Made by a program: the position numbers and the translations under genes. Positions 30,125-44,550 of a stretch of DNA of 64,000 bases are shown in pieces. The stretch spans positions 5,952,001 through 6,016,000 of the forward strand of contig NZ_JBGEDP010000001.1 in the NCBI RefSeq assembly GCF_041206865.1. The letters run 5' to 3'. Positions within the stretch are counted from its first letter, which is position 1; the number at the start of each line of letters is the position of its first letter. Below the pieces are notes generated by a model that did not search any database, was not told the origin of the DNA, and worked only from the letters and a program-made list of their open reading frames with translations. This DNA comes from Mycobacterium sp. HUMS_12744610 (lineage in GTDB: Bacteria; Actinomycetota; Actinomycetes; Mycobacteriales; Mycobacteriaceae).

Positions 30125-31156
30125 ATGACCGCAACAACCGAAGCGTCGGTGCTGGAATCCCGGGTCGGCCACTACTACCAGATGGACGGCACCTACCTGG
30201 TCGGCCGCGAAAAGGTGCGCGAGTACGCCCGCGCCGTACAGGACTACCACCCCGCGCACTGGGATGTCGCCGCCGCCGCCGACCTGGGGTATGCGGGTCT
30301 GGTGGCGCCGCTGACGTTCACCTCGGTGCCGGGCATGGCCTGTAATCGCCGCATGTTCGAGTCGGTGGTCGTCGGTTACGACACCTACATGCAGACCGAA
30401 GAGGTCTTCGAGCAGCACCGCCCGATCGTGGACGGTGACGAACTGCACGTCGACGTCGAACTGACGTCGGTGCGCCGCTTCGCCGGCCGAGACCTGATCA
30501 CCGTCACCAACACCTTCACCGACACCGCCGGCGAGCGGGTGCACACCCTGCACACCACCGTCGTCGGTGTCACCGCCGAGGACGTCGACCCGGCGGTCAA
30601 ATTGGCCGCGCCGAAGATCATGATGCATGACGTGGACCTCGTGGCGATCGGCAACTCCAGCGTCGCATACGAGAAGACGGTCCGTCCCGAAGGCGAGGTC
30701 CGGATCGCCGAGGCGGGCACTGCCCGCACGCCGGGGACGCGGTCCTTCGACGAACTCAAGGTCGGAGACGAGCTGCCGGTGCGGCATGCCCGGCTGTCCC
30801 GCGGAGACCTGGTCAACTATTCCGGCGTGGCCGGCGACGCCAACCCCATTCACTGGGACGAGGGCATCGCGAAGCTGGCCGGGCTGCCCGACGTGATCGC
30901 CCACGGGATGCTCACCATGGGCTTGGGCGCCGGCTTCGCCTCCGCGTGGTCGGGCGACCCCGGCGCGGTCACCCGCTACGCGGTCCGGCTGTCCCAGCCC
31001 GCGATCGTGTCCGCCGCCGAGGGTGCGGACATCGAATTCAGCGGCCGGATCAAGTCGCTGGACCCCGAGACCCGCTCCGGTGTGATCATCGTCGCCGCGA
31101 AGTCCGGCGGCCGAAAGATCTTCGGCCTGGCGACGTTGAACGTCCGCTTTTCCTGA
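30125..31156 (+). CDS. Fused MaoC-type (3R)-hydroxyacyl-ACP dehydratase (HadA/HadB-like)
   Basis: A 343-residue protein made of two hotdog domains, like a fusion of the FAS-II dehydratase subunits HadA and HadB. The N-terminal half has YYQMDGTYLVGREKVREYAR and DYHPAHWDVAAAADLGYAGL; the C-terminal half has the hydratase-2 motif DANPIHWDEGIAKLAGLPDV followed by IAHGMLTMGLG, with catalytic Asp and His present. Such enzymes dehydrate (3R)-hydroxyacyl thioesters in fatty or mycolic acid synthesis or hydrate enoyl-CoA in lipid breakdown. ATG 30125 follows GAAGAGTTGAG. The TAGTGT at 30070-30075 may be its -10 box. No partner genes adjoin it. Confidence 0.85.
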   Translation: MTATTEASVLESRVGHYYQMDGTYLVGREKVREYARAVQDYHPAHWDVAAAADLGYAGLVAPLTFTSVPGMACNRRMFESVVVGYDTYMQTEEVFEQHRPIVDGDELHVDVELTSVRRFAGRDLITVTNTFTDTAGERVHTLHTTVVGVTAEDVDPAVKLAAPKIMMHDVDLVAIGNSSVAYEKTVRPEGEVRIAEAGTARTPGTRSFDELKVGDELPVRHARLSRGDLVNYSGVAGDANPIHWDEGIAKLAGLPDVIAHGMLTMGLGAGFASAWSGDPGAVTRYAVRLSQPAIVSAAEGADIEFSGRIKSLDPETRSGVIIVAAKSGGRKIFGLATLNVRFS

Positions 31157-31303
31157 ATCGGCCATGCGCTGGTGACAGCCGCCCGGCGCGCTCGCCGTGC
31201 GCGGGTCACGACCGTAAGCCCGTGCCTGCTTGCCCTCCTTCCCCCTGACACGGGCGCGTCGGGCGCCTACCGTCGGAGTGACGAGCGCACGCTAACTGAA
31301 GGG

Positions 31304-31625
31304 ATGGTGGCCCTGCTCGCGATTACCGATCCAGCCGCCGAGGCGATCAGCGCGTTGACCAAACCAGCAAGGCAAGCAGGAGTCCGCGGGACTGCGCTTC
31401 GCGGTGCAGGAGCACCCGGAGGGCGCTCGGCTCACGTTGTCCGTGACCGACCGGCCCGAGGCCGGTGACCAGGTCCTCGGCACCCAGAACGGTGCCAAAG
31501 TTTTTCTGGGACCGCAGGCCACCGCGTTCCGCGACGCCAAGGTCCTCGACGTCCAGCAGGACGCCCAGGGCCAGCTGAGCTTCGCGGTCACACCGCAGTC
31601 GGACAATCAGGCGCCTACGGTCTGA
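31304..31625 (+). pseudogene. HesB/IscA-fold protein, frameshifted
   Basis: The start MVALLAITDPAAEAISALTK (from 31304) resembles mycobacterial HesB/IscA-like proteins. The frame is then lost, and the frame one base off continues SAGLRFAVQEHPEGARLTLS, then LGTQNGAKVFLGPQATAFRD up to TGA 31623-31625. One extra A near 31366-31370 explains the break. The cysteines that bind Fe-S in true A-type carriers are absent, as in several mycobacterial family members, so an Fe-S role is doubtful even before the frameshift. If repaired it would be about 106 residues. Confidence 0.6.
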
Positions 31626-31799
31626 GACCGGTCGGAACGGTCCTGGTGCCGGCGACGGTGTTGCCGATTCGCATCGAACGACGCCGCGCCATACAGGCGG
31701 CCGCCAGCCGTAGACACTAAGGTCCTTGGGCGTAGCACATATTCACGAGTCCGACCGAATAGCTTGAAGCCATGTTGGATCAGAACCAAAAGGCGTTGG

Positions 31800-32125
31800 C
31801 GAAAGTCGTACTGTTTTTGCAGCGTATGTGCGGAGTCACCAAGCTCGGGCGGTTCGACGACGACCACGAGCACCTCGACGCTGGCGAACCGGATTGTGCG
31901 CGGCGTGAACCGCGGTGTCGCGGCGTACGTCTTGATCCCCGGTGCGAGGTCGGCGTGGTCGATAGCGGGGATTCCAGCCGCCGCGCTGGGTTCCACCCCC
32001 ACGACCATGTACGCGACGCCGCCGAAGTTGAGCCGAGCGTCTTCGACGGAGCGGTTTGCGAAGCCGGATTCCCACGGCAGTGGCGAGAGCGACATGCAGT
32101 CTCGACACCTGACCACGCCCACCAA
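31800..32125 (-). pseudogene. Fragment of an AlbA_2 (Schlafen-type) DNA-binding domain protein
   Basis: The minus-strand frame reads CMSLSPLPWESGFANRSVED, FGGVAYMVVGVEPSAAAGIP, FTPRTIRFASVEVLVVVVEP and then HTLQKQYD. This resembles the AlbA_2 putative DNA-binding domain found in actinobacterial ATP-binding and helicase-like proteins, often on mobile islands. Both the N-terminus and the long C-terminal part are missing; after about 31800 the frame drifts into unrelated sequence. I take it as a remnant, not a gene. Confidence 0.5.
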
Positions 32126-32210
32126 GGTGGGAACTTCTCGCGGCTAATTCCCCTGATATCGCGGTGTTTCGGAGGTCGGAGACGGCAGTGCTGGGCCCGG
32201 CTGTCCGCGG

Positions 32211-32598
32211 TCACGTGCGGACGGTCTTGAGCTCCGTCGTCGCGGGTTCGCTCCACACCTCGTAGCGCCATCCACGCCGGTCGACAAGCGTCCTCGTCCA
32301 GTCGAGAGTGAACCTGACTTTGGTTTGTCGAGTTGAGAGCTCGGCTTCACATCAACGACCACTGGTCCCTCGTCTGTCAGCAGCAGGTAGTCGGCTACGT
32401 GCTTGCGCACACGCTTGTCGATGGCGGCGCGAATCAGGGGCCCCGGGATCGAACAGTTGCGCCAGCTTGAACGACAGGTCGACCGAGTGACACGCCTCCT
32501 TCGGGACGACGATGTCAGGATCGAGTCGCCGATCTTGGCGGCGAAAAACACCGCGGGACTGCGGGACTCGAGCAACCCGCTCAGCGCGACATGTGGAC
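32211..32598 (-). pseudogene. TnsA-like transposase endonuclease remnant
   Basis: Minus-strand frames carry RVRKHVADYLLLTDEGPVVV, then DVKPSSQLDKPK, and after a one-base shift near 32318 FTLDWTRTLVDRRGWRYEVW up to a TGA at 32211-32213. The H-x-x-D-Y/F-L...V-x-V-K-P...GWRYEVWS pattern is that of TnsA-like heteromeric transposase endonuclease subunits (restriction-endonuclease fold; the Asp-x-Lys of VDVKP is catalytic). Upstream, SLxLAQLFDP-like residues are spread over two other frames, so at least two indels are present. It starts right behind the eccC2 stop. It marks a past Tn7-like or related element at this edge of the ESX segment. Confidence 0.6.
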
Positions 32599-35500
32599 TC
32601 ACTGGGGCGGGATCGCCGTCGACGGCATCCCGACCAGGACGCCCTCGACGTCCCCGTCGGCGCTGAGCAGCAGCCCCCGTCCGGGTGGCAGCGCCTGGGC
32701 GCGAACGACGCGGTTGATCCTGTTCTGCGGGTCGTTGTCCATGTAGAGCTGCGACACCTTGGCCGAGTTCTGGAACCGCATCCACGGATCCATCTGCAGC
32801 GTCGCCCAGTTCGAGCTGTTACGCGTGGTGAACACATGCAAACCGATCTGGCGGGCCCGTTCGATCAGCTTCCACAGCGCCGCCCCCACCGGCGGTTTGG
32901 GCGGGTAGCTCTGATCCGGCCGCAGATCCTGCACGTCGTCGATGAGCACGAAGTGCCGTGGACCCTCCCACGGCTTGAGGGCCCGTAATTCCTCCTGGCT
33001 CAAACCTTTCGGTGGTAGCCGGGGCAACAACACCTGCTGGGCGAGCTCGGTGATCACCTCGTCGATCTCGTCCTGGTCGTAGGCGTATGCGCGCACATAC
33101 CCCGGGCCGTTCAAATCCCGCAGACCGTGCGGGGCCGTCTTGGGGTCGATGAGCGTCAGTTGGGCCTCGTCGGGGCTGAACCGGCTCATGATCGCCTCAC
33201 CGATGGCCACCAGCGACAACGTCTTTCCGCAGCCCTGCCTGCCCAGAATCATCAGGCCGGGGCTTTCCCGCAGCTTCAGCGGGACCGGGCCCAACTCGTG
33301 GCGCTCGCCGATGGCGAAGGCGATCGAGAGGTCGTCACCGCTCGGGTGTGCTGCCTCGTAGTCGAGGATTGCCCTGAGCTCGACCCGTTGCGGCAGCCGT
33401 TGCAGCGTCGCATGCTTGGTCACTCCGGCGACCTCGGCGATGCGGCCGCCGACCTCGGTGATCCCCACCAGCGTGCCGGTGGCGGGATCCGCGAGGGCCG
33501 GCACGCCGACGCGCAGCTCGTGCAGGCTGTCGGTCAGACCGAAGCCGGGCCGATTCACTGTCCGCCGCGCCGCTTCCCGCGACTCGATCGACGAGTGCCC
33601 CATCTGGCTCTCGCTGGGGTCAGCCAACCTCAACTGGATTCGGGCCGTGGCATTTTGCAGCAGGCTCTGGCGCTGCCCGTGGATCCAGCCGCCGGCGCTG
33701 CAGATCACGTGCACCCCGTATTCCGGGCCGCGGCTGCTCAGCGAGATGATCCGGTCACCCAACAGGGTGTCCTTCGAATACAGGTCGTCGTAGTCGTCGA
33801 GGACCACGAACACGTCGCCGAACGGGTCGGTGGGATCGGTGCCGCCCAGGCCGTCGCTGCCGGGACCGAACCGGCGCTCGCGGAAGCCGTCGAGGTCGAT
33901 CTTGAGGTGGCGGAACGAGTTCTCACGCGCGTCGATCAGCGCGTCCATGCTGCTCAGGATGCGTTCGATGCCCTCGTTGTCCTTCGGCGACACGATGTCG
34001 GTGACGTGGGGCAGCGACGCCACCTGCGCCATGGTGGCCCCGCCGATGCAGAAGAACGTCACCCGTGCCGGGCTGTACATCGTTGCGGCCGAACACATCA
34101 GCGTCATCAAGGTGGTGGTCTTGCCGCGCTGCTTGGCGCCGACCACGACGATGTTGCTGCGCAGCGCGTCGACCGCGTACACGACCTGGCGGGATTCCTC
34201 CGGAATGTCCATCACGCCCACCGGGAACATCAGACCGGTGTTGCGGCCGTAGTCGATGTGCCAGGGCTTGCCCCGGTATCCCGCCACCAGCACGTCGACG
34301 GGCTCGGGGTCTTCCAGCGGTTCCAGCCACGGCCGCCGCGGCGCCCGGTGCGGCACGGCGTGCAGCGACTCGCGCAACACGTCCACGATCTTCTTCCTCT
34401 TGAAACCGTCTTCGTGGTAGAGGAATTCGTCGGGCTCCGCATCCACGGCCGCGGCGGCTTCCAGTGCCGACGCGTCGGCCGAGTCCAGCGGCTGGTACTG
34501 CCAGTTGTACAGCCGCGGCTTGGTCAGGGTCATGTCGACCGTCGTGGCCACCTGCGCCGTCTTGGGCACCACGAACGGTGCCGACAGGTAGAAGCAGCGG
34601 AACGGTTCCAGATCCCGTGGTCCCACCTTCAGCAGCGCGAAACCGTTCTCCTTCGACGGCAGGTGGTAGGCGGCGTCCGAGCCGATCACCTCGCGGCTGT
34701 CGTCGCCGGACTCGGCGCGGAGTGCGATGCGGAACGCGATGTTGGACTTGACCTTCTGCAGCGACGACAGGTCGAGCCGCTGACCGCCCAGCATGAAGAA
34801 GACGTTGGCGCCGCGGCCCTCCTGCCCGATGTGGATGATGAGGTTGATCCACTTTTCGTGGTTGGCGAACAACTCCAGGTATTCGTCGACGATGACCAGT
34901 AAGACCGGCACCGGGGGCAGGTCGCGTCCGGCGAGCCGGATCTCTTCGTAGTCGTTGGCGTCGCGTGCGCCCACCGACGTGAACAGCTCGTAACGCTGCT
35001 TGATCTCGCCGTCGATGACGCGGCGCATCCGTTCGGCCAGGTGGCGCTCGTCCTTGCCGAGGTTGGACAGCGCGGCCACCACATGCGGGATGCCCAGGAT
35101 GTCTTGAGCCGCCGACTCGAACTTCATGTCGACGAAGATGACGTTGAACGCCTCCGGCGAGTGCGTCAGCGCGATCCCGTAAACAAGCGACAAGAAGAAC
35201 TCCGACTTGCCCGAGCCGCTGGTTCCGATTACCACGGAGTGAAAACCGAAGCCGCCGAAGTCTTTCGCCCGCAGGATGATGTTCTGCAGCTCGCCGTTGG
35301 GTTTGGCGCCGACGGGGATCTCGCACCACCGCTCGTCGCCGCGGCCGCGCCGCTCCGCCCACAACCGGTCGACGTCCAGCTCCCGGGGGTCAACGATGCT
35401 CAGCGCCCGCAGCAGTTCTGCGGCTCCGCTGGTCGAGTCGGCAGCGTCGCTGCGGCTGGTCGGCGACCACCGCGCCATCGCGCGCGCATAGCGGTACGCC

Positions 35501-36813
35501 CGGTGAAGCGACAACTGGTCGGCATGCGCGAAAAACTTCCCACGCAGCCGAAGTAGCGGCGCCGGGCAGTCGTCGTCGTCAGGGTCCGATCCGTTCGTAA
35601 CGGCCTTCCGCTGCTTGTTTACCGAAACCTTTGGTGCGCTGTGGCGCTCGCGCATCTCGAAGACCTGGTCGTCGGCGAAGCCCACGCCGGCGCCCACCCG
35701 GGAGGCGATGCGCAGCACGGAGATGCCGGCCTTGCCGACCTGGCCGACCACGCTCTCCCACGCGTCGGGGCTGCCGGTGTTGTCGTCGACGATCACCAGG
35801 TGCGGGCCCAAATCTGCCGCGTCGGCCCCCTGACCGGTTTCCAGTGCCGAGCCCATCGCGGTCGGGCTCGCCACCACCGGCGGCGTCCAGGCGCCCCGCT
35901 TGCCCTTCATGTGCAGCTCGGCGCCCAGGGCCGCTTCCAGTTCCTCCGGCGTGGCGAAAATCAGGCGTCGCCAACCACATGCGTCGAACAGCTCATCATG
36001 CAGGTTGTGCGGCAGCCACACCATCCACGACCACACCTCCGGATTGCGGGTCACCACCATCAATTTCATGTCGTGGGGATTGTGGAACACCGCCAGCGAA
36101 CACAACACCGAGCGAAGCAGCGACCGCAGCCGGTCCAGATCCTCGCCCACGAAGCTGAATCCCGGCGCCGACCGCAGGTTCACCACCTTGGCGATGTCGC
36201 GAATCTTGCGCTGCTCCAAGATGAAGTCGCGCAGAGCCTGGCCGGTCACGGGTTCGAGCTCCTCGTCGGAGGAGATGTCGGGCCAGGTCACCGACAGCAC
36301 CGAGTCCGGCGCGTGCTGCACCCCGGTGCCCAGCCGCACCTCCAGGAAGTCGGCATCCCCGCGGCCGCGCTCCCACATCCGCGGGCCACCGATGATCGCC
36401 CCGAGCCCCTGCGGGTCGGAATGCAGAGCATGCTGCCATTCGCGTTGGGCGCACACCGCGTTCTGGATCTCGTCCCGGTTGACGTCGAGGTCACGCAGGT
36501 AGCGGCGGCGCCCGCGTTCCATTTCGCCCCAGGTGATCTTGCGGGCACGCCCGAACCGCCCGGAGAAGGCCAGCATGCTGAAGGCGCCGATGCCCATCAG
36601 CGGAAAGAAGCCGGTGGTCAAACTGCGCACACCAGAGACATAGAGCATCACCACCGTGCCGATGAGCGCCACGATCAGCGCCGGCACGCCGATCATCACC
36701 CAGATGTTGCGCGGCTCGCGTTCCGGAAGCGCGATCGGCGCGCTGGGCGCCACCCGTACCGGTATGGGCGGATCGATCTTGACACGGTTGATGGCAAATG
36801 CCCTCTTCGACAT
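32599..36813 (-). CDS. eccC2: Type VII secretion ATPase EccC (ESX-2 type)
   Basis: A 1404-residue FtsK/SpoIIIE-type ATPase, the motor of an ESX secretion machine, in one polypeptide. Two N-terminal membrane helices (IWVMIGVPALIVALIGTVVM and TTGFFPLMGIGAFSMLAF) are followed by three ATPase domains with Walker A GTSGSGKSE (~residue 526), GAKQRGKTT (~889) and GRQGCGKTL (~1187). Walker B-like VLLVIVDEYLEL and VFVVLDDYDDL are seen. The start MSKRAFAIN and the single-chain form match M. tuberculosis EccC2 (Rv3894c) better than the split EccCa1/Cb1. ATG 36813 is two bases from the eccB2 stop. Downstream, where PE/PPE and esx genes should follow, only a transposase remnant is found. Confidence 0.93.
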   Translation of the reverse strand: MSKRAFAINRVKIDPPIPVRVAPSAPIALPEREPRNIWVMIGVPALIVALIGTVVMLYVSGVRSLTTGFFPLMGIGAFSMLAFSGRFGRARKITWGEMERGRRRYLRDLDVNRDEIQNAVCAQREWQHALHSDPQGLGAIIGGPRMWERGRGDADFLEVRLGTGVQHAPDSVLSVTWPDISSDEELEPVTGQALRDFILEQRKIRDIAKVVNLRSAPGFSFVGEDLDRLRSLLRSVLCSLAVFHNPHDMKLMVVTRNPEVWSWMVWLPHNLHDELFDACGWRRLIFATPEELEAALGAELHMKGKRGAWTPPVVASPTAMGSALETGQGADAADLGPHLVIVDDNTGSPDAWESVVGQVGKAGISVLRIASRVGAGVGFADDQVFEMRERHSAPKVSVNKQRKAVTNGSDPDDDDCPAPLLRLRGKFFAHADQLSLHRAYRYARAMARWSPTSRSDAADSTSGAAELLRALSIVDPRELDVDRLWAERRGRGDERWCEIPVGAKPNGELQNIILRAKDFGGFGFHSVVIGTSGSGKSEFFLSLVYGIALTHSPEAFNVIFVDMKFESAAQDILGIPHVVAALSNLGKDERHLAERMRRVIDGEIKQRYELFTSVGARDANDYEEIRLAGRDLPPVPVLLVIVDEYLELFANHEKWINLIIHIGQEGRGANVFFMLGGQRLDLSSLQKVKSNIAFRIALRAESGDDSREVIGSDAAYHLPSKENGFALLKVGPRDLEPFRCFYLSAPFVVPKTAQVATTVDMTLTKPRLYNWQYQPLDSADASALEAAAAVDAEPDEFLYHEDGFKRKKIVDVLRESLHAVPHRAPRRPWLEPLEDPEPVDVLVAGYRGKPWHIDYGRNTGLMFPVGVMDIPEESRQVVYAVDALRSNIVVVGAKQRGKTTTLMTLMCSAATMYSPARVTFFCIGGATMAQVASLPHVTDIVSPKDNEGIERILSSMDALIDARENSFRHLKIDLDGFRERRFGPGSDGLGGTDPTDPFGDVFVVLDDYDDLYSKDTLLGDRIISLSSRGPEYGVHVICSAGGWIHGQRQSLLQNATARIQLRLADPSESQMGHSSIESREAARRTVNRPGFGLTDSLHELRVGVPALADPATGTLVGITEVGGRIAEVAGVTKHATLQRLPQRVELRAILDYEAAHPSGDDLSIAFAIGERHELGPVPLKLRESPGLMILGRQGCGKTLSLVAIGEAIMSRFSPDEAQLTLIDPKTAPHGLRDLNGPGYVRAYAYDQDEIDEVITELAQQVLLPRLPPKGLSQEELRALKPWEGPRHFVLIDDVQDLRPDQSYPPKPPVGAALWKLIERARQIGLHVFTTRNSSNWATLQMDPWMRFQNSAKVSQLYMDNDPQNRINRVVRAQALPPGRGLLLSADGDVEGVLVGMPSTAIPPQ

Positions 36814-36815
36814 CG

Positions 36816-38303
36816 CTAGCCTCCGGCCTTCGCTGTTGTCGTCACCACGGCCACCCTTCCGAGCGCGGGCACGGTATCCCGAGCCACCAACGCCGCCTGC
36901 TGCGACAACGCCGGTCCCGCAGCGAAAGTCCGCAACAGCGGCCACGGCGCCTGGACCGCAGCGGCCGGGTCGAGGCCCAACGCACGCAACGTCGTGTCGT
37001 CGGCGGCGATCCCGAACCGCACCCCGTTGGGGGAAACCCAGAACAACGATTCGCGGGAATCGGAGGTGATCACCCCGCTGGTCGACGTCACGAAGTTCGC
37101 CGCCCCGGGTAGCACCAGGACATGGTCGGCCACCACCGACGCCGGGCCACGGTCATCACGGACCAGGTGCACGATCCGGTCGTCCATCGACGCTGAGACC
37201 GGAAGGCCCCGGCCGTTGTAGACGGCCACCCGGGCCTGCGGGTCCGTCGAGGCCTTCTCCCAGCCCACGCACGTCGTCGGATTCGCCTCGGTGTCAATGA
37301 AATTCAGTCGCCCGCTCGGGTAGTAGTCCACCGGCAGGGTGTTGACCTCCGGGGTGTTTACCAGCACGTCGGGAGTCACCACTCGCGGCGCCGTCGACCC
37401 GTAGGAGTTCGCACTGCGCAGCAGATCGGCCACGAAGCTGTCGATCTTCTGCACCCCGTCGGGCAGCAGCACATAGAACTGGCTTCCCCCGCCGGCGGTT
37501 TGGGCTTGCAGCACCGCACCGACCTGGGAGCCCGCCACCCATTTCGACGGAGTGCCCGCCTCGGGAACCTGCGGAACGCTCAGCGGCTCGGTCGCCGGCA
37601 GCGCGTCGAACAGCGCCCGGGAGATCTCGACCGGTGACGTGACGCCGGGATCGAGGCCCAGGCTCAGCGTGACCGCCCGATTGGTGGGATCGATCCGCGA
37701 GCGCTTGTCGCCCCAGATCACATAGGTGTTGCTCTGGAAGGTGACCAGCAGTCCCGCGTCGCGCCGCAAAGGTGTCGCGCGGGCAACACCGTTGAGCCGG
37801 CCCGCGATCGAGGTCACCACCGGTTTGTCCCCGCTGCGCGGCCGGCCCGCCGTGTCGCACACTGACCACGCCGAAATGGCGCCGCGGTTCACCGGCATGG
37901 CCGCCGGCGCTCCCGGGATGCCGATCAGCGGTCCCGACGGATATTTCGCGATCTCGGCGGGTTTGACCCACGTCGGCTGCGCCGCCGATCCCGTCGCCAG
38001 GCGCGCCGAGGTCAGATTCAACGCCGGATAGAGCCGGCCGTCGATGCGGGCGTAGACCGCCCCGGAGTCACGGTCGCCGATGATTGCCGAATCCCCCACC
38101 ACGCCCGTGGGTTTGAGCACGTTCAGCAGAATCATCCAGCCCCCGGCGATGGCCACCAACACCACCGAGAGCACCAGCGCGGCGGTCTGCTTGCGGTCGT
38201 CGTGCTTCATCCGCACCGAGAAGCGGGTGGTGGCGGCCCGCAGCCGGCGGTTGTAGAACAGGTGCCCGGAATTCTGTTCGCGGTTGGACAAACTCAGCGG
38301 CAT
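36816..38303 (-). CDS. eccB2: Type VII secretion core protein EccB (ESX-2 type)
   Basis: A 495-residue EccB, equal in length to EccB2 (Rv3895c) as remembered. The N-terminus MPLSLSNREQNSGHLFYNRR is cytoplasmic; one membrane helix follows (TAALVLSVVLVAIAGGWMIL), then a periplasmic domain with repeats such as GAVYARIDGRLYPALNLTSA and paired Cys (VCDTAGRP and TTCVGWEK). EccB is part of the ESX membrane complex with EccC, D and E. ATG 38303 overlaps the TGA of the transglycosylase-like gene (ATGA). Intact, although EccD, EccE and MycP are not in the window. Confidence 0.93.
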   Translation of the reverse strand: MPLSLSNREQNSGHLFYNRRLRAATTRFSVRMKHDDRKQTAALVLSVVLVAIAGGWMILLNVLKPTGVVGDSAIIGDRDSGAVYARIDGRLYPALNLTSARLATGSAAQPTWVKPAEIAKYPSGPLIGIPGAPAAMPVNRGAISAWSVCDTAGRPRSGDKPVVTSIAGRLNGVARATPLRRDAGLLVTFQSNTYVIWGDKRSRIDPTNRAVTLSLGLDPGVTSPVEISRALFDALPATEPLSVPQVPEAGTPSKWVAGSQVGAVLQAQTAGGGSQFYVLLPDGVQKIDSFVADLLRSANSYGSTAPRVVTPDVLVNTPEVNTLPVDYYPSGRLNFIDTEANPTTCVGWEKASTDPQARVAVYNGRGLPVSASMDDRIVHLVRDDRGPASVVADHVLVLPGAANFVTSTSGVITSDSRESLFWVSPNGVRFGIAADDTTLRALGLDPAAAVQAPWPLLRTFAAGPALSQQAALVARDTVPALGRVAVVTTTAKAGG

Positions 38304-39160
38304 CAGTACCCCCTGGGCGATCGGCGAGGGTCGGCCTGCTGGATCCGATCGGCCAGATTCGACCCGTCGGCGGCCACTCCGTAGCGGCCCCGCGCATAGT
38401 TGATGAACGCGCAGGCCTGCGCCACCAGATCGTGAATGTTGGTCGATGTTCCGGGCTCGTGATATGCCGCGAATGTTGGCGCGATGAACTGCCACGCTCC
38501 GCAACTCGGTGTACCGTTGGCCGCGTTGGCATCCCAGATGTTGACCGCGCCGGCGTCGTAGCCGGATTCGCGCCGGGCAACCAGGTCCATGCCGCGTCGC
38601 CAGCGGACCCGCGCGATGGGGTCGTGAATGCCCTTGATGTCCAAGGCTTTACCGATGGCCGCCTGCACGGCGGTGCGGCCGCTGGGGTGGCGGTGTCGGT
38701 GCTGCTGTAGGTAGCGCAAATGGCGCAGCCGATGCGCCAGCAGCCGTGACCGCTGCCGCGACCGAGTGATGTGCCGGTGCTGTGCCCGCAGTCGCGCCGC
38801 CATCCGGGTGATCGCCTCGCGCCGACCCACCGGGGTGTCGGCGCCCGAGGCCGCATCGGCCGTGGCCGCGTCCAGAATCATTCGAGTCACCGCTCTGGTG
38901 TGCGCGTGATCGGCCCGCGCCGCCGCCACGACCCGTTTCAGCGCCACGTCGTCGTACGCGATGCGGCGCAGCGCTTGCGTTGACCTGTTCGATCGGGCGG
39001 CCGCTGTCGGGATATTGGGCGCCGCCGATATCGAATCGGCGTGGGCGTGAATTCGCGCGGGCACGTCACCGACATCGCTGCCGGTGACTTCTCCGGCGAA
39101 TAGGGAATGGCCGCGGGATAAGGCCGCCACGGCTTCGGTGATAAACGGCTCGGTCAACAA
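38303..39160 (-). CDS. Lytic transglycosylase-like (SLT domain) protein, Rv3896c-type
   Basis: A 285-residue protein whose C-terminal ~110 residues form a lysozyme-like SLT domain: MDLVARRESGYDAGAVNIWD with the catalytic Glu in RRESGYD, then TPSCGAWQFIAPTFAAY and ACAFINYARGRYG. The N-terminal part is helical and His/Arg-rich (LRAQHRHITRSRQRSRLLAH), with no signal peptide seen. It matches the position and size of Rv3896c next to eccB2 and could open peptidoglycan for the secretion machine. The start is a TTG (39160, or 39157); an ATG at 39173 is out of frame. Overlaps eccB2 by four bases. Confidence 0.75.
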   Translation of the reverse strand: MLTEPFITEAVAALSRGHSLFAGEVTGSDVGDVPARIHAHADSISAAPNIPTAAARSNRSTQALRRIAYDDVALKRVVAAARADHAHTRAVTRMILDAATADAASGADTPVGRREAITRMAARLRAQHRHITRSRQRSRLLAHRLRHLRYLQQHRHRHPSGRTAVQAAIGKALDIKGIHDPIARVRWRRGMDLVARRESGYDAGAVNIWDANAANGTPSCGAWQFIAPTFAAYHEPGTSTNIHDLVAQACAFINYARGRYGVAADGSNLADRIQQADPRRSPRGY

Positions 39161-39406
39161 CGCGCCCGTTCATGCCGTGTTGTCGTCGCGCCCCCGCGCA
39201 CCCTATCCATACCGGGCAACTCCCACATTTTCCCGCCGGCGCCGTCACCTAACAGCATGCCTGAGACGGCGACGCTCTTGTCTAGAACGGGCAATCCCAG
39301 CCCAGCCGATCCCGTCGGGTTTTACGTGGCGAGACTACTGCCGTTCGGAGCGGCTCACCACTCACCCCCGGTGCCAGCGATTGCGCCGGTCACGGCGCTG
39401 AAGCGG

Positions 39407-40453
39407 CTATTCTTTCGCCTCGTCCTCGCTCGGCATGATCACGATCCGCCGATTGGGCCTGTTGGTTACCACGGTCGGTTTCCCGTCGGCATGCTTGGCG
39501 ACAGGCGCGCTCGGCGGCAGCGCCGTCAAGCGGCCCTTGACCGGCTGGCCGTTGGGCACCCCGGGCGCCGAAACCCGCTTTTCGACCGGCTTGTCTTTTG
39601 CGCCCTCGCCGCCAGCGCCGGCGACACCCGGCATCATCGGCATGCCGGTCATCCCCGTGGAACCCCTGGCCGGGGCGGTGCCGTCGGCCGGTGGCATCGC
39701 GACGGGCTTCGCCGGCGCCCCGGCGGGGCTCGTCGGCGGCGACGATCCCGGCACGGGCGGGGGACCCAGCGATGCAGCCGGTGTCGTGCCGCCGAGGCCG
39801 CCGATTCCGCCGCCACCACCACCGGCACCCAGCTCCGAGCCGGAGCCGACGCTGTCCACCAGCGTGGGATCCCCGGCCGCCAGCGCCTCGGCACCGTGAG
39901 AGGCCTGCTGGACCGCGCTCATCAGCGGCTGCATCGCGCTTTGGCCGGCCTGCATGGCCTGCTGCGGAAGCTGCGTCAGCGGGCCCATGATGCCGCCGAG
40001 GGCACCGGTGAGCGCGCCGGTGACGCTCGAGACCATCTGCTGAACCATTTGCATGCCCTGCTGACCGCCCGCCTGCGCACCGACAGCTTGCATCTGCTGC
40101 GCCGAATTCGCTTCATTGGCAGGGAATTTCGCCAGCGCATCCGCCGCGTGCGCCCGGCGGTCGGCGTCCGCTTCGGTGCTGGACGCCACGTCACCCGGCA
40201 CGCCGGCGTTGCTTGCGGCGACCAGAGCGCCGGACGCCGCATCGGCGGGTGAGGTTCCGGTCGGAGGCGCCGGAGTCGGTGCGATCGGGGGCGGCAGCGG
40301 TACCCCGTACAAGGCCTGCGACAGCGTGTCCGGCGTGACCTTGATCGTGGTACCGGGCGGGAGGTTGGGGCCTGGGATGGAGGACAGGAGCGACGGGTTA
40401 GGGCCTCCCGGCGCTCCTGGTGCGGGGACCGGCGCGGAATTGTCTCCGGTCAT
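39407..40453 (-). CDS. Pro/Ala/Gly-rich ESX-2-associated protein
   Basis: A 348-residue protein with an N-terminal proline-rich segment (PVPAPGAPGGPNPSL), a central alpha-helical Gln/Met/Ala-rich part (AQQMQAVGAQAGGQQGMQMV, QQMVSSVTGALTGALGGIMG, LPQQAMQAGQSAMQPLMSAV) and a Gly/Pro-rich C-terminal half ending PNRRIVIMPSEDE. The central stretch resembles the C-terminal parts of PPE-like or EspE/EspF-like ESX-associated proteins. No signal peptide; secretion through a type VII system is an inference from context. ATG 40453 has GAGGTG six bases upstream. Lies between the transglycosylase gene and the larger substrate-like gene, roughly where Rv3897c/Rv3898c sit. Confidence 0.65.
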   Translation of the reverse strand: MTGDNSAPVPAPGAPGGPNPSLLSSIPGPNLPPGTTIKVTPDTLSQALYGVPLPPPIAPTPAPPTGTSPADAASGALVAASNAGVPGDVASSTEADADRRAHAADALAKFPANEANSAQQMQAVGAQAGGQQGMQMVQQMVSSVTGALTGALGGIMGPLTQLPQQAMQAGQSAMQPLMSAVQQASHGAEALAAGDPTLVDSVGSGSELGAGGGGGGIGGLGGTTPAASLGPPPVPGSSPPTSPAGAPAKPVAMPPADGTAPARGSTGMTGMPMMPGVAGAGGEGAKDKPVEKRVSAPGVPNGQPVKGRLTALPPSAPVAKHADGKPTVVTNRPNRRIVIMPSEDEAKE

Positions 40454-40571
40454 GTGTTCACCTCATCCCTGCCGTTCAGAGCCTGGGGCCCGCCATGCGC
40501 ATAGTCGGCCGTCTAGGCCATTTTGGCACAGCACGAGTCTCACGGTATTCACGTCGACCGAGGCAGATGGC

Positions 40572-42740
40572 CTACGAGACGCAGCGGCGGGTAAGTGCGT
40601 TGAACCAGGCCAGGTGGTAGTTCGCCAGGTACTCGTGGTCGTCGATGAGCGCCTCGATTGCGGCCAGCAGCATCCAGTCCGCCACGGCGGCCGGGTCGTG
40701 GCGGGGGTATGCACTCGACACCGAGTGCCGGACGTCGCTCAGGCATGCGCGCAAGAGTTTGGCTTCGTTGGCCAGCACACCCGTCTTGCGCACTGCCGGG
40801 CTCGCGACTGCTTGAGCTATCCGCGGCAGGCCGTCGCGGCGCCGCACGGCGTCCACGAGGCTGGGCCCGAGTTCGTCGACCCTGGGTGCGGCGGAGCGCG
40901 CCGCCCGGTCACCACTCAACACCGGTGCGTCCGGGCCGGGCTCGGCGACGTAGGCATCGGGCTCATGTGCGGCCGCGGTCACTACGGCTCCCAACAGATC
41001 GACGACGCTGGCATCGCCGCGCCGCGCCGCCGGTTCGAGCACCGTCACGTGGGCAGGCAGGCGGACGTGCGGCGGAATCCACCCGCCGGCCAGATCGGTG
41101 ACCAGCAGGCTCGTCGTGCCGTCATCGCGCAGCCCCGCCGCCCACGACAGACGCGGTTCCTGGCGCGCCACTGCGTCAACAATGCGCTGTAGGCGTTGTT
41201 GTTCGGCGGCCCGGCTCGAGGCCGCGCCGGCAGTCGCTCCGGTCGCAGTCGACGCCGCCGATGCACCGGCCAGCGCGGGGGAACTCGCGCCGGCCTGGCC
41301 CGCTGCGGTTTGGGAGGCGGCCCGTTCCACCGGAGAAACCATTGGCCCGCCCGCTGACGGGGACGACGGTGCCGAAGGTGCGACTGCGGCCCCCGAGACC
41401 GGTGCGGTCGGGGCCGAAGCCACGGCGGGCGGCGCGACCATCGACGGCCGCAGATCCGATCCGTACGCGGGCAGCGGTCCAGCGGGGACGACGGGGCCGC
41501 CGGCCACCGGCGCCGCGGGCGTCGACCACGAGCCGCCTGTCATCACCGCGGGCGCCACCGGCACACCGCCGCCGGTCGTCGGCGCCAGCGGAGGTGAAGT
41601 GACTGCGGCGTCTACGGGAGTGCTTGCGGCAGTGAACGATTCACCACCGGCCATGGGGATGGACGGCGCGACGGGCGGCACCAGCGGTGGCGAGGCCTGC
41701 GGCGGCGGCGCCGACCCTGTTCCCATCGCCTGCATCGCGCCCGAGGACAACGACTGCGCGCCAGCGCCCGCTGGTTGACCTGTCGCCATTCCGGACATGA
41801 ACGACTGGCTTAAAGAGTTGGGCGACAAGCCTTGGCCTAGGGATGCTGGGGATACGCCCATCCCCGGTAGCGGCGGACCAGTTAGCGAACCGCTGGGTAC
41901 GTGTACACCCCCAGACGGAACAGCCGTAACCTGTCCGCTTGCGCCGACACCACCAAACCCAGAGCCGTTCCCTTGGCTACCTAAGCTCGGCCCGCCGAGA
42001 GTAGGCCCGTTACCGGCATGCGGGCTGCTTGCCCTTCCGCCCGAGTCGGATCCTTGAGCGGTGCCACCCAACGCACTACTCGTTTCGAGCTGTCCGCTGC
42101 GAGCGTTAGGACCGTTTCCTTGGCTTCCAAGCGCTGCTCCGCCATTATTATTCTCAACCGCCTGGCTGGAATTCGGGGCCGTCGGCATGGCGGTCCTTAA
42201 CTCGTGGTGGTTACCGTATTGCTGCGCTGATGCCGCAATGCCTTCGGCGTTGAGTACCTTCTGAGTTGCGTCCGCGATTGATGCAACCGCGACACCTGAT
42301 TTATGCGCCGCGAATCCGTTAGCTTCAGTAACAAGGGCCGATATTTCCGCCGCTTTCACAGGCTCGGGCTGCTTCGAATTTTCGACCTCAGCAATTCGTC
42401 GATTATATTCATCGGCAACCCCACGCAGGCCTTCTCGAAGGCCATCGACAGCATCAGCGCCCTTGGAAAAGGCGTCGGCTTTTGCTTTATATTTTTCGGC
42501 TAAGTCAAGATGGCTTTTTTCGCCCCGTTGGAAACGGGATACCAGATCATCTATGGTCTGTCCCTGGTTCCTTGACGCCAGCTGGGACCACTGCATATGC
42601 AGTTCCTGTGCATAATGCTCTTGCTCCTGCTGCTGCATCCGCCAATGCTCAGCGGCGGTGTGCAACGCTGACGACGGCTGCGGGTACCATGTGCCGATAA
42701 GCAGCGCTGTGTATTTTCCCGAAGGCAAGTCCCCCGTCAT
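40572..42740 (-). CDS. Large ESX-2-associated protein with helical N-terminus and DUF5631-like C-terminus
   Basis: A 722-residue three-part protein. Residues 1-175 are a helical hairpin-like domain (TAAEHWRMQQQEQEHYAQEL, DDLVSRFQRGEKSHLDLAEK, GLREGLRGVADEYNRRIAEV) resembling WXG100-like substrate domains. Residues 175-520 are Gly/Ser/Pro/Ala-rich linker. The last ~200 residues are globular (RLSWAAGLRDDGTTSLLVTD, GGWIPPHVRLPAHVTVLEPA, DPAAVADWMLLAAIEALIDD), resembling the C-terminal part of Rv3899c (DUF5631/5632). ATG 42740 has GAGGAGGG upstream. Codons 1-300 are markedly richer in A/T than the rest, suggesting that the N-terminal half came by recombination. Probable type VII substrate. Confidence 0.65.
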   Translation of the reverse strand: MTGDLPSGKYTALLIGTWYPQPSSALHTAAEHWRMQQQEQEHYAQELHMQWSQLASRNQGQTIDDLVSRFQRGEKSHLDLAEKYKAKADAFSKGADAVDGLREGLRGVADEYNRRIAEVENSKQPEPVKAAEISALVTEANGFAAHKSGVAVASIADATQKVLNAEGIAASAQQYGNHHELRTAMPTAPNSSQAVENNNGGAALGSQGNGPNARSGQLETSSALGGTAQGSDSGGRASSPHAGNGPTLGGPSLGSQGNGSGFGGVGASGQVTAVPSGGVHVPSGSLTGPPLPGMGVSPASLGQGLSPNSLSQSFMSGMATGQPAGAGAQSLSSGAMQAMGTGSAPPPQASPPLVPPVAPSIPMAGGESFTAASTPVDAAVTSPPLAPTTGGGVPVAPAVMTGGSWSTPAAPVAGGPVVPAGPLPAYGSDLRPSMVAPPAVASAPTAPVSGAAVAPSAPSSPSAGGPMVSPVERAASQTAAGQAGASSPALAGASAASTATGATAGAASSRAAEQQRLQRIVDAVARQEPRLSWAAGLRDDGTTSLLVTDLAGGWIPPHVRLPAHVTVLEPAARRGDASVVDLLGAVVTAAAHEPDAYVAEPGPDAPVLSGDRAARSAAPRVDELGPSLVDAVRRRDGLPRIAQAVASPAVRKTGVLANEAKLLRACLSDVRHSVSSAYPRHDPAAVADWMLLAAIEALIDDHEYLANYHLAWFNALTRRCVS

Positions 42741-42889
42741 GAGCCCTCCTCGCAAGCCGCCGGTTTCGAGACAACTCAGAGCACCGGTTAACGTTGCGGT
42801 TTCTATGTTGAACCATCCCAAGATGAGAAGCAAATCACGCAACGCGTGTGTGCAGGCAGATCAACTTATGGCCGTGTGGTCCGACGAAT

Positions 42890-43422
42890 TCACGCGCACG
42901 CTTCACGAAGTGCCGATGTCGCTGACTCCACATCACCTCCATCGGCTTTTTCTTCTGCAAACGCGGTAATTACGTAGTTCAAGTAGGCATCAGCCAATTT
43001 TCTAGCCAATGTGGTTAGAGTTGTCGGCGTTGCTGGTTCTATCGAGGTAGTCAGTGCGAGCGCACCACCAACCAGAGCCGCACGCGCATTCGCGGCGGCT
43101 GCTACCGGTTCCGCCCCGTCTGGCGCAGACGTCGCTACCTTGACCGCCTTGCTTACACTCTGGAACGTCGAACACAACCGCTTATTGGCCGCCGCTACGT
43201 CCGCCGCACTGAAGCTCGAGGGCATCGAGGAGGTTGTCGGGGGGTGCTGCGCCCTGTTGCCCCCGGACTCGGCTGAGTCAGAGAAATGATGCCGACGGCA
43301 AGCGCAGCCAACGAAATCAGCGCAATAGCGGCGATGACGCTTATTAGACCGTTCCCTAAAGTACGCCGGGGGCGCCCTGGTGTCCCATCTTGTCCAGCGG
43401 CGGGAGTTTGAGGATTCGTCAC
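42890..43422 (-). pseudogene. Membrane-anchored Ala-rich protein, frameshifted in a homopolymer
   Basis: From ATG 43422 one frame gives a proline-rich tail (MTNPQTPAAGQDGTPGRPRR), one membrane helix (LISVIAAIALISLAALAVGI) and SLTQPSPGATG. The frame is lost in a run of six G (43239-43244, C on the coding strand). The next frame continues PTTSSMPSSFSAADVAAANK, RLCSTFQSVSKAVKVATS and a helical domain to the stop at 42890. The joined product matches a mycobacterial group of small proteins with an N-terminal anchor and a conserved A-D-V-A-A-A-N-K-x-L-C start of the external domain. One missing base in the run explains it. Likely extracytoplasmic; function unknown. Confidence 0.65.
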
Positions 43423-43579
43423 GACACCAGGCTAATCGCAGCTTTGCGTCGTTATCATCCGAATCTCTGCGTTAGCAACGATCGCTTGTTGCAGCGCGAG
43501 GCGGCATCTCAGCTTGAATCTCCTGTCGCACGTAGCCGATCAACTCGACCCGCCAACGGCTCGATTTGGACCCAGCCCT

Positions 43580-44143
43580 TCATCCCCCAACCAATTGGTC
43601 CTTCACGCTGAACCCGCTGTCACGGCGGTGGTCATTCATATTGCGGCACTGGCCCAGAAGCTTTACGGACCCATCGGCGTCGGGGTAGGGACTGATGCCG
43701 ATCGTGGCCATCACGTCGTCTTGGTGGATCACCGTGCCGGTCGCGTGCTGCCCATGGGGCGGACCCGCAGACCAGCCGTTGGACTCCATCGTGTTGGCGA
43801 TCCGCTGGAAGTACGCACTGTGGTCGGAGCCCTGCGGCACGACGAACGTCATGTCGAGCCGGCCTCGATAAGGCTTCTCCCCCTGGTCATTACACGACTC
43901 CCAGCGAAAGCTGCCCGAAACATCCTGCAACCGAGACACATCGGCGATCTGCTTGGCCGCAGCGACCACCTGGGCGACGGATTGGCCGTCCGACAGCGGC
44001 TGCTCGGGCTTATCGGCCTGGTGTCGGGACGGGAACCGCACCGAACACCCCCCGAGCATCAAGGCGCTTGCGATCAGCACCGCGACCCCGACCGCGAGCC
44101 GCGCGGGCCATCGCCGAAGACGCTTACCCAACACCGTGGTCAC
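43580..44143 (-). CDS. Probable lipoprotein
   Basis: A 187-residue protein with a basic N-terminus (KRLRRWPARL), a hydrophobic core and the lipobox LMLGGCS (Cys about residue 33), so it should be lipid-anchored outside the membrane. The mature part has two further Cys (WESCNDQGE and GQCRNMND) that may pair, and blocks FVVPQGSDHSAYFQRIANTM and DDVMATIGISPYPDADG. No family recognised. GTG 44143. It sits upstream of the anchored protein gene and downstream of the small helical gene at 44236, within the ESX-2 flank. Confidence 0.7.
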   Translation of the reverse strand: MTTVLGKRLRRWPARLAVGVAVLIASALMLGGCSVRFPSRHQADKPEQPLSDGQSVAQVVAAAKQIADVSRLQDVSGSFRWESCNDQGEKPYRGRLDMTFVVPQGSDHSAYFQRIANTMESNGWSAGPPHGQHATGTVIHQDDVMATIGISPYPDADGSVKLLGQCRNMNDHRRDSGFSVKDQLVGG

Positions 44144-44235
44144 TTAGCACAGCAATCACCCTAGCGGCCCGGTTATTCCATTCCGGGTAGCCGTTCGCCG
44201 AATCGGCGCAGCAGTGCGATGGCCCGGAAACCTAG

Positions 44236-44550
44236 CTAGCTCACGGACTTGTCCCGCACCGCGCGCAGCTGCTCGGCGCCGCGTTCGTCCATCCCGGTGA
44301 ACTCCGCGGCGGCGTAGGCCGCCTTGGAGCCCACCGCGGAAAGCGCCTCGTAGTGGACCTGCAGGCTCCTCAACTGCTCGGCGTGGGCCGCGCTGAGGGC
44401 CTCGTGAAAGGTCTCGGCGGCGGCGAAGTCGCCGAACATGCCCGCGGCGAGCGGCCCCCGGGCAAGGTGATCGGCCCCGTCGCGGGCGTGCCCTCCGGCG
44501 CGGTGGGACTCGTTGGCTCCCAGCCGCAGCAATCCCGGGTCGACGAACAT
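44236..44550 (-). CDS. Small helical ESX-associated-type protein (DUF2563-like)
   Basis: A 104-residue helical protein beginning MFVDPGLLRLGANESHRAGG and containing GMFGDFAAAETFHEALSAAH and LRSLQVHYEALSAVGSKAAY. Mycobacteria have a group of ~100-residue proteins with this M-F-V-D-P-x-L-L start (DUF2563), related in size and helix pattern to EspC/WXG100 proteins. Whether it is secreted is unknown; there is no WXG and no clear YxxxD/E tail. ATG 44550 has AAAGGGGG upstream. Confidence 0.65.
   Translation of the reverse strand: MFVDPGLLRLGANESHRAGGHARDGADHLARGPLAAGMFGDFAAAETFHEALSAAHAEQLRSLQVHYEALSAVGSKAAYAAAEFTGMDERGAEQLRAVRDKSVS

What the first reader, a model, noticed from the sequence alone, without database searches (positions are those of the whole stretch)
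32599..44550. Cut-down ESX-2 locus: intact eccB2/eccC2 and substrate-like genes but no esx, PE/PPE, espG, eccD, mycP or eccE
EccC2 (all three Walker A motifs) and EccB2 (full length) are intact, and upstream genes resemble Rv3896c-Rv3900c. In M. tuberculosis, eccC2 is followed by PE36, PPE69, esxD/esxC, espG2, eccD2, mycP2, eccE2 and eccA2. Here the sequence right behind eccC2 is a transposase fragment and then unrelated genes. Either the rest was deleted and the remnants serve another ESX system, or it has moved elsewhere. Intact frames for two membrane components suggest the remaining proteins are still under selection, perhaps as an alternative ATPase/EccB pair.
Basis: partly seen in the sequence, partly recalled or inferred. 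Interest (0 to 1): 0.7.

Follow-up and report, generated by a model that had tools for sequence, protein, structure and literature searches.

The report
Secretion operon split by origin inversion
In this mycobacterium the genes of the ESX-2 protein-secretion machine are not missing but lie in two pieces on either side of the chromosome's replication origin, likely pulled apart by a DNA inversion, and related species likely suffered such cuts independently, each just in front of a predicted promoter.

Summary
But nothing was lost. The other ten ESX-2 genes sit at C1:93.0-104.0 kb on the + strand, 128 kb away across oriC (dnaA at C1:4); one of them, eccE2, has a frame change near its start. Against intact relatives the layout is one origin-spanning inversion, with breakpoints just behind eccC2 and between two blocks that are still neighbours in intact G017. 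A species group with M. colombiense, M. scrofulaceum and M. nebraskense is split between the same two genes but with another second breakpoint; each lineage keeps the other's second junction unbroken, so two independent inversions are the simplest reading. A more distant ESX-2-like lineage shows a third origin-spanning split, between PPE and esxD. All three cuts lie upstream of conserved promoter-like elements. Both halves evolve under purifying selection and occur together in 23 of 23 close genus genomes (19 of 20 in a named set). Split ESX-2 in the M. avium complex and in M. paragordonae is in print, as transposition or lateral transfer; new here are an independent case, the inversion mechanism and the promoter-boundary pattern. 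Joint function of the halves is inferred.

The parts
32599..36945 (-). eccC2, ORF of 1448 aa; relatives align from residue ~44, so the true start is probably near 36816 (inferred)
36816..38504 (-). eccB2, ORF of 562 aa; Pfam EccB match at residues 71-546, so the true start is probably near 38300 (inferred)
38303..39160 (-). gene directly upstream of eccB2, no Pfam match; conserved next to eccB2 in most relatives of the 86-95% group
39407..40453 (-). upstream gene, no Pfam match, conserved in position
40572..42842 (-). DUF5632/DUF5631 protein; C-terminal part matches solved structure 5imu
43580..44143 (-). upstream ORF without Pfam match; 91% match at the same place in M. helveticum
44236..44550 (-). 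DUF2563 gene
32439..32602 (-). remnant of a glycosyltransferase-9 gene directly behind the eccC2 stop; marks junction 1 of the inversion
31157..32438 (.). stretch between the last M-side gene and the remnant; no protein family found; junction 1 lies in or beside it
30125..31156 (+). fused HadA/HadB-type dehydratase gene, last gene of block M, which continues into block R in intact G017 and in G046

Best explanation
All twelve ESX-2 genes are in this genome in two pieces, eccB2-eccC2 on one side of the replication origin and PE to eccA2 on the other, most likely parted by an inversion that spans the origin, and the two pieces are predicted still to build one secretion machine. Shown by sequence: gene content, positions, opposite strands, dnaA between the halves, and blocks in the order +, -, + against an intact relative, the signature of one inversion. 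One breakpoint lies between the eccC2 stop and a conserved promoter-like element about 70 bp in front of PE (GAATAC-N19-TASACT in this genome); the other joins positions about 36 kb left and 77 kb right of dnaA, the latter now followed by a 16-kb IS/recombinase island. Inferred: PE-eccA2 kept its own promoter and eccB2-eccC2 theirs, so the cut cost little; turning a segment that contains oriC leaves both halves near the origin and transcribed in the direction of replication; EccB2/EccC2 and EccD2/EccE2/MycP2 then assemble in trans. The species group around M. colombiense and M. scrofulaceum most likely underwent an independent inversion that shares only the eccC2|PE breakpoint.
For: Ten-gene run at C1:93017-104012. 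dnaA at C1:4-1374. Blocks against G017: -84.9..-36.5 kb (+), -35.0..77.0 kb (-), 92.9 kb onward (+); G074 agrees where it aligns; dnaA lies in the inverted block. G046, of the other split group, has its own +, -, + pattern with another far breakpoint and keeps the M|R junction that this genome broke; this genome keeps the X|P junction that G046 broke. Tree of 68 EccC2 genes: this genome with M. helveticum (100), then the intact contig L032 (100); X group separate (98). GT9 on one side and DUF4254 on the other side of the cut, neighbours in G110. PE motif: 27 of 28 loci in degenerate form, 22 exactly. dN/dS in both halves 0-0.19 between this genome and M. helveticum. Same 23 of 118 genomes hold both halves.
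Against: eccE2 has its first ~25 residues in another frame than its body, while M. helveticum has it continuous. One named split genome, M. colombiense GF76, gave no EccD2 (19 of 20). G100 shows eccC2 in two overlapping frames. EccB dN/dS for the sister pair (0.19) is above the intact mean (0.10), though the ORF compared includes an upstream extension. M. helveticum has other outer flanks than this genome. On the tree alone, one split with a return to intact in L032 is as short as two splits (3 changes in all); the junctions decide. L032 is a short contig of a low-coverage MAG. No transcript or protein data.
Confidence: 0.8

Rival explanations
1. The split arose once in the common ancestor with the M. 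colombiense/M. scrofulaceum group, and this genome was rearranged again afterwards.
For: Same gene boundary cut; the two groups join on the tree (86); two splits and one split plus a return to intact are equally short on the tree.
Against: X|P is unbroken here and M|R is unbroken in G046; going from one state to the other would need at least two more inversions re-using breakpoints; L032 next to this genome is intact.
Confidence: 0.12
2. The two halves are kept but no longer form a working machine; eccE2 is broken here and the system is starting to decay.
For: Frame change at the start of eccE2; two-frame eccC2 in G100; published mutations in PPE69 and EccC2 of M. avium 104 (PMC3749206, passages).
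Against: Low dN/dS in both halves after the split; eccE body of 513 codons is open and matches TIGR03923 31-344; the lesion may be a sequencing error.
Confidence: 0.15
3. eccB2-eccC2 serve another ESX system of this genome as an alternative ATPase/EccB pair.
For: The genome has six EccB and six EccD places.
Against: Each of the six EccB can be given an EccD, including the ESX-2 one at C1:97386; co-occurrence of the halves in the same 23 genomes.
Confidence: 0.04
4. Transposition or lateral transfer moved eccB2-eccC2 or the PE half, as published for other species.
For: IS copies and a recombinase-like gene beside the PE half; published readings (PMC4791881, PMC6616192, passages).
Against: Not only the genes but about 110 kb around dnaA changed orientation as one block; both halves are 95% identical to M. 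helveticum (EccC2, EccD2).
Confidence: 0.04
5. Assembly artefact: the halves are adjacent in the real chromosome.
For: Near-identical IS copies lie near one junction.
Against: Three contigs, 99.99% complete; no repeat shared by the window and the PE-side stretches in that comparison; the separate M. helveticum assembly has GT9 behind eccC2 and DUF4254 before PE.
Confidence: 0.02

Closest known systems
ESX-2 type VII secretion locus of M. tuberculosis (Rv3884c-Rv3895c; layout as given in the finding and PMC6616192)
   Same: Same gene set; within each half the same order and orientation; EccC matches solved EccC2 domain 6jd5
   Different: One cluster there, two pieces on opposite sides of oriC here
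Relocated EccB2/EccC2 of the M. avium complex (PMC4791881, passages: 'transposition of EccB2 and EccC2')
   Same: Same two genes parted from the rest at the same boundary; loci named M. colombiense, M. arosiense, M. vulneris carry it
   Different: Other second breakpoint: block X behind eccC2 and P before PE there, M and N/IS island here; explained here by inversion
Split ESX-2 of M. paragordonae (PMC6616192, passages; ascribed to lateral transfer)
   Same: ESX-2 genes in two distant regions
   Different: pe36 stays with eccC2/eccB2 there. My third lineage (G110, G006) is cut between PPE and esxD; that M. paragordonae belongs to it was not tested

Membership tests
ESX-2 type VII secretion system (gene content) | EccB, EccC, EccD, EccE, MycP and EccA present | tested here: met
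ESX-2 type VII secretion system (gene content) | PE, PPE, Esx pair, EspG and Rv3888c-like ATPase in the same run | tested here: met
   (second Esx has no WxG by regular expression; both WXG100 matches are over the Pfam cut-off)
ESX-2 type VII secretion system (gene content) | EccC on the ESX-2 branch, not ESX-1/3/4/5 | tested here: met
   6jd5 (EccC2) 522.9 bits over 268 residues against 554.8 bits over ~1375 residues for full-length EccC5
ESX-2 type VII secretion system (gene content) | Uninterrupted frames in all twelve genes | tested here: inconclusive
   eccE2 start is in another frame; the other eleven are open
ESX-2 type VII secretion system (function) | ESX-2-dependent secretion | not testable with these tools
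   none
Contiguous ESX-2 locus as in M. tuberculosis (layout only, not a condition for being ESX-2) | PE directly behind eccC2 | tested here: not met
Split ESX-2 of the M. colombiense/M. scrofulaceum group, by descent | Block X behind eccC2 and block P before PE | tested here: not met
Origin-spanning inversion | +, -, + blocks against an unsplit relative with dnaA in the inverted block | tested here: met

The most novel reading that the evidence does not exclude
Origin-centred inversions have cut the ESX-2 operon at least three separate times, and each surviving cut lies just upstream of a conserved internal promoter: in front of PE twice, in front of esxD once, in a lineage where the esxD element is conserved but none was found in front of PE. 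One big secretion operon is thereby turned into two co-directional operons, one on each replichore, that still build one machine in trans. Internal promoters would be the fault lines along which machine operons can break.
Probability: 0.5. Interest if true: 0.62.

Novelty: new member of a known kind. Interest (0 to 1): 0.5.

Why it matters
It turns a reading of gene loss into one of rearrangement and warns that 'partial' ESX loci seen in a window or contig may be split, not degraded. It gives a mechanism, origin-spanning inversion, for splits that were published as transposition or lateral transfer, points to promoter-like elements in front of PE and esxD that can be tested directly, and offers natural cases for asking whether a membrane-spanning secretion machine needs its genes side by side. 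ESX-2 has a reported role in phagosome rupture by M. tuberculosis (PMC8593097, passages), so knowing where its genes lie in other mycobacteria matters for annotation.

Tried and rejected
Transposase fragment behind eccC2: not found. Recombination between repeats shared by both junctions: none between the window and the PE-side stretches compared, so what caused the inversion is unknown. A motif common to both halves: the PE motif has one exact hit in the own genome. Searches covered a mis-spaced form of it (one base too long), found nothing, and are not used. The EccE query was a shadow frame (C1:100534-102171); the real body is C1:100592-102133, so the EccE rows of those calls are discarded. 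In one search the 14 intact names include two duplicate pairs (G017/L042, G074/L048), i.e. 12 genomes, and the EccA and MycP values rest partly on cut sequences. A first alignment in front of group-3 esxD failed through a wrong program option and was redone: TGAAGTGACA is in 11 of 11 rows (two rows identical), but a TANACT at 16 bp only in 7 of 11 (8 of 11 with a looser TAnnnT at 16-17), and TGAAGTGACA also occurs elsewhere (23 hits, some kilobases from esxD), so this third promoter is the weakest. Against G017 the origin region of G110 looks collinear with the eccB-PPE piece dropped in, which speaks against one inversion; the comparison with the nearer intact G012 resolves it as one inversion, with G012 itself inverted against G017. 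Of 80 loci 20 stayed unclassified. I did not look for conserved promoters in the other spacers of the operon. M. simiae (L041) is unresolved.

Full report
Observation. In the window, eccC2 (32599-36945, minus strand) and eccB2 (36816-38504, minus strand) are open and complete by profile, and I found nothing of ESX-2 behind eccC2 there. EccC is of the ESX-2 branch: the solved M. tuberculosis EccC2 domain 6jd5 matches with 522.9 bits over 268 residues.

The missing genes. The window is C1:5952001-6016000 of a three-contig genome; C1 has 6019647 bp. Six EccB and six YukD/EccD places exist. One EccD, at C1:97386, lies in a + strand run: PE 93017-93316, PPE 93332-94522, esxD-like 94596-94943, esxC-like 94981-95268, espG 95369-96199, Rv3888c-like 96286-97353, eccD 97374-98876, mycP to 100537, eccE body 100592-102133, eccA 102168-104012 (start codons are my choice). 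dnaA is at C1:4-1374. So eccC2 ends 35 kb left of dnaA on the - strand and PE starts 93 kb right of it on the + strand.

How it came about. Counted from the start of C1, blocks of this genome map to intact G017 as -84.9..-36.5 kb to 82.0-141.7 kb (+), -35.0..77.0 kb to 247.9-143.7 kb (-), and 92.9 kb onward to 248.1 kb onward (+); G074 agrees where it aligns. dnaA of G017 lies in the inverted block. That is one inversion of about 104 kb on the G017 scale. Its breakpoints are between the eccC2 stop and PE, and between blocks that I call M and R. An island of about 16 kb with IS3-type transposase genes, a DDE_Tnp_1_4 transposase gene and a tyrosine-recombinase-like gene now lies between R and PE.

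An independent split. Of the 80 named loci kept, 22 have a conserved block X behind eccC2 (21, L101), 35 are intact, 3 are cut behind PPE by the script's thresholds and 20 are unclassified. In the split genomes compared, PE is preceded by a conserved block P. X was found in 13 and P in 12 of 16 genomes; they lie 5-17 kb apart in intact G017, G074, G057 and G097, on different contigs in intact G091 and G051 (drafts, uninformative), 159-180 kb apart in split G046, G036, G080 and G100, and 7 kb apart in this genome (C1:5936767-5946954), where they touch neither half. G046 maps to G017 as X (+), then 247.85 down to 97.6 kb (-), then 248.15 kb (+), and keeps M and R 0.2 kb apart. Each lineage keeps the other's second junction. 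On a tree of 68 EccC2 genes (of 90 rows considered; dropped were short matches, two duplicates and most of the 59% group), this genome and M. helveticum join (100), with the intact MAG contig L032 next (100); the X group is a clade (98); both together have 86. The split/intact label needs 3 changes, which does not by itself tell two gains from one gain and one loss. The junctions favour two inversions.

The place of the cut. In front of PE, 27 of 28 loci (13 split, 15 intact) match GA[AG][TC]A[CG]-N19-TA[GC]ACT, 39-68 bp from the estimated PE start; 22 of 28 have exactly GAATAC, and M. helveticum has GCATAC. The exact form has 30 hits in 3.48 Mb of fetched loci (overlapping fetches included, 27 distinct places), each in front of PE; spacings 15-18 and 20-23 give one hit in all. 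The own genome has one hit, C1:92947-92977. TASACT fits a mycobacterial sigma-A -10 (TAnnnT, recalled); GAATAC is not a usual -35. A second element, TCGACA-N17-TACACT, is in all 12 ESX-2 loci aligned in front of esxD, with 42 hits in the fetched loci, each shortly before esxD by the coordinates, and none at spacings 14-16 or 18-20. The eccC2|PE spacer also holds different inserts elsewhere: a ~650-aa gene plus a lipoprotein-like gene in G029 and G105, related DNA in L035, L038 and L048, and a VapC-like ORF in M. gastri (names by eye). In this genome and in M. helveticum GT9 stays with eccC2 and a DUF4254 gene with PE; in G110 GT9-GT9-DUF4254 stand in tandem, so the cassette was likely inserted first and then cut.

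A third case. In a lineage whose EccC is about 59% identical to the window's, G110 has eccB-eccC-PE-PPE on one side of dnaA and esxD to eccA on the other, on opposite strands; G006 has the same two pieces near opposite contig ends, dnaA not located. Intact G012 maps to G110 as -54.3..-19.8 kb (+), -19.7..65.4 kb (-, with dnaA), 68.1-76.5 kb (+): one inversion with breakpoints PPE|esxD and a sharp point at -19.8 kb. Against G017 the origin region of G110 is collinear and the eccB-PPE piece sits inside it; G012 explains this, being itself inverted against G017 with a breakpoint at the same point, so two successive inversions re-using one breakpoint are likely. In front of esxD 11 of 11 rows share TGAAGTGACA (10 distinct); no conserved block was seen in front of PE.

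Selection and retention. Between this genome and M. helveticum (dS 0.16-0.31) dN/dS is 0.092 (EccC), 0.19 (EccB), 0.127 (PPE), 0.124 (EsxD), 0 (EsxC), 0.153 (EspG), 0.046 (Rv3888c-like), 0.113 (EccD), 0.083 (MycP); intact pairs average 0.086, 0.100, 0.157, 0.118, 0.152, 0.158, 0.080, 0.119, 0.131 (up to 89 pairs from 12 distinct genomes). Of 118 genus genomes, the same 23 have EccC2 at 86% or more and EccD2 at 82% or more. In a named set 19 of 20 have EccD2; M. colombiense GF76, a draft, does not.

Results against. The start of eccE2 is in another frame than the body, while M. helveticum has it continuous. G100 shows eccC2 in two overlapping frames. PMC3749206 (passages) reports mutations in the PPE69 and EccC2 regions of M. 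avium 104. M. helveticum has other outer flanks than this genome. A working machine is therefore a prediction.

What is in print. PMC4791881 (passages): the M. [quoted passage not shown] PMC6616192 (passages): M. paragordonae ESX-2 in two distant regions, one part ascribed to lateral transfer. PMC3749206 (passages): M. avium TH135 EccC2 is MAH_4605 and the PPE69 homologue MAH_0168; no remark on the distance in the passages seen. PMC10619280, PMC8025370, PMC8593097 and PMC4894912 were seen as passages too. Four of five answered literature searches listed papers; the one joining ESX-2, mycobacteria, origin of replication, inversion and operon found none. In what I saw there is no account of origin-spanning inversion or promoter boundaries for ESX-2; subscription papers, preprints and supplements are not covered.

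Noticed in passing
G000 C1:89127-90824 and C1:107552-109249 (L013, L014): Two direct copies of an IS with a DDE_Tnp_1_4 transposase (IS1380-like, name recalled), 99.94% identical over 1698 bp, bracket the PE-eccA2 half; recombination between them would delete it.
   Followed up: partly
L103:12534-12620 (C1:100534-100620): The first ~25 residues of eccE2 lie in another frame than the rest; M. helveticum has the gene in one frame. Real lesion or sequence error not told apart.
   Followed up: partly
L023:14347-22359: In M. helveticum eccC2 is followed by GT9, an integrase-like fragment and a hisC-like gene whose relative lies at C1:223 kb in this genome, so that species has another arrangement.
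   Followed up: partly
L102: M. montefiorense: esxC-espG-...-eccA stand in front of eccB-eccC-PE-PPE, a circular permutation of the cluster.
   Followed up: no
L095 and L097 (NZ_FUEZ01000004.1): M. numidiamassiliense holds two EccC2-like loci in opposite orientation within about 40 kb of one contig.
   Followed up: no
L125:7606-11037, L127, L048, L038, L035: The eccC2|PE spacer of intact loci carries a ~650-aa gene and a lipoprotein-like gene, or decayed versions of them; M. gastri (L067) has a VapC-like ORF there.
   Followed up: partly
G000 C2:52653-62649 and C3:103420-116155 (L021, L022): Two smaller contigs, possibly plasmids, each carry an EccB and an EccD gene.
   Followed up: no
G012, G017, G110 near dnaA: G012 is inverted around the origin against G017, and the same breakpoint (G017 ~176.13 kb) is used again in G110: breakpoint re-use near oriC.
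   Followed up: partly
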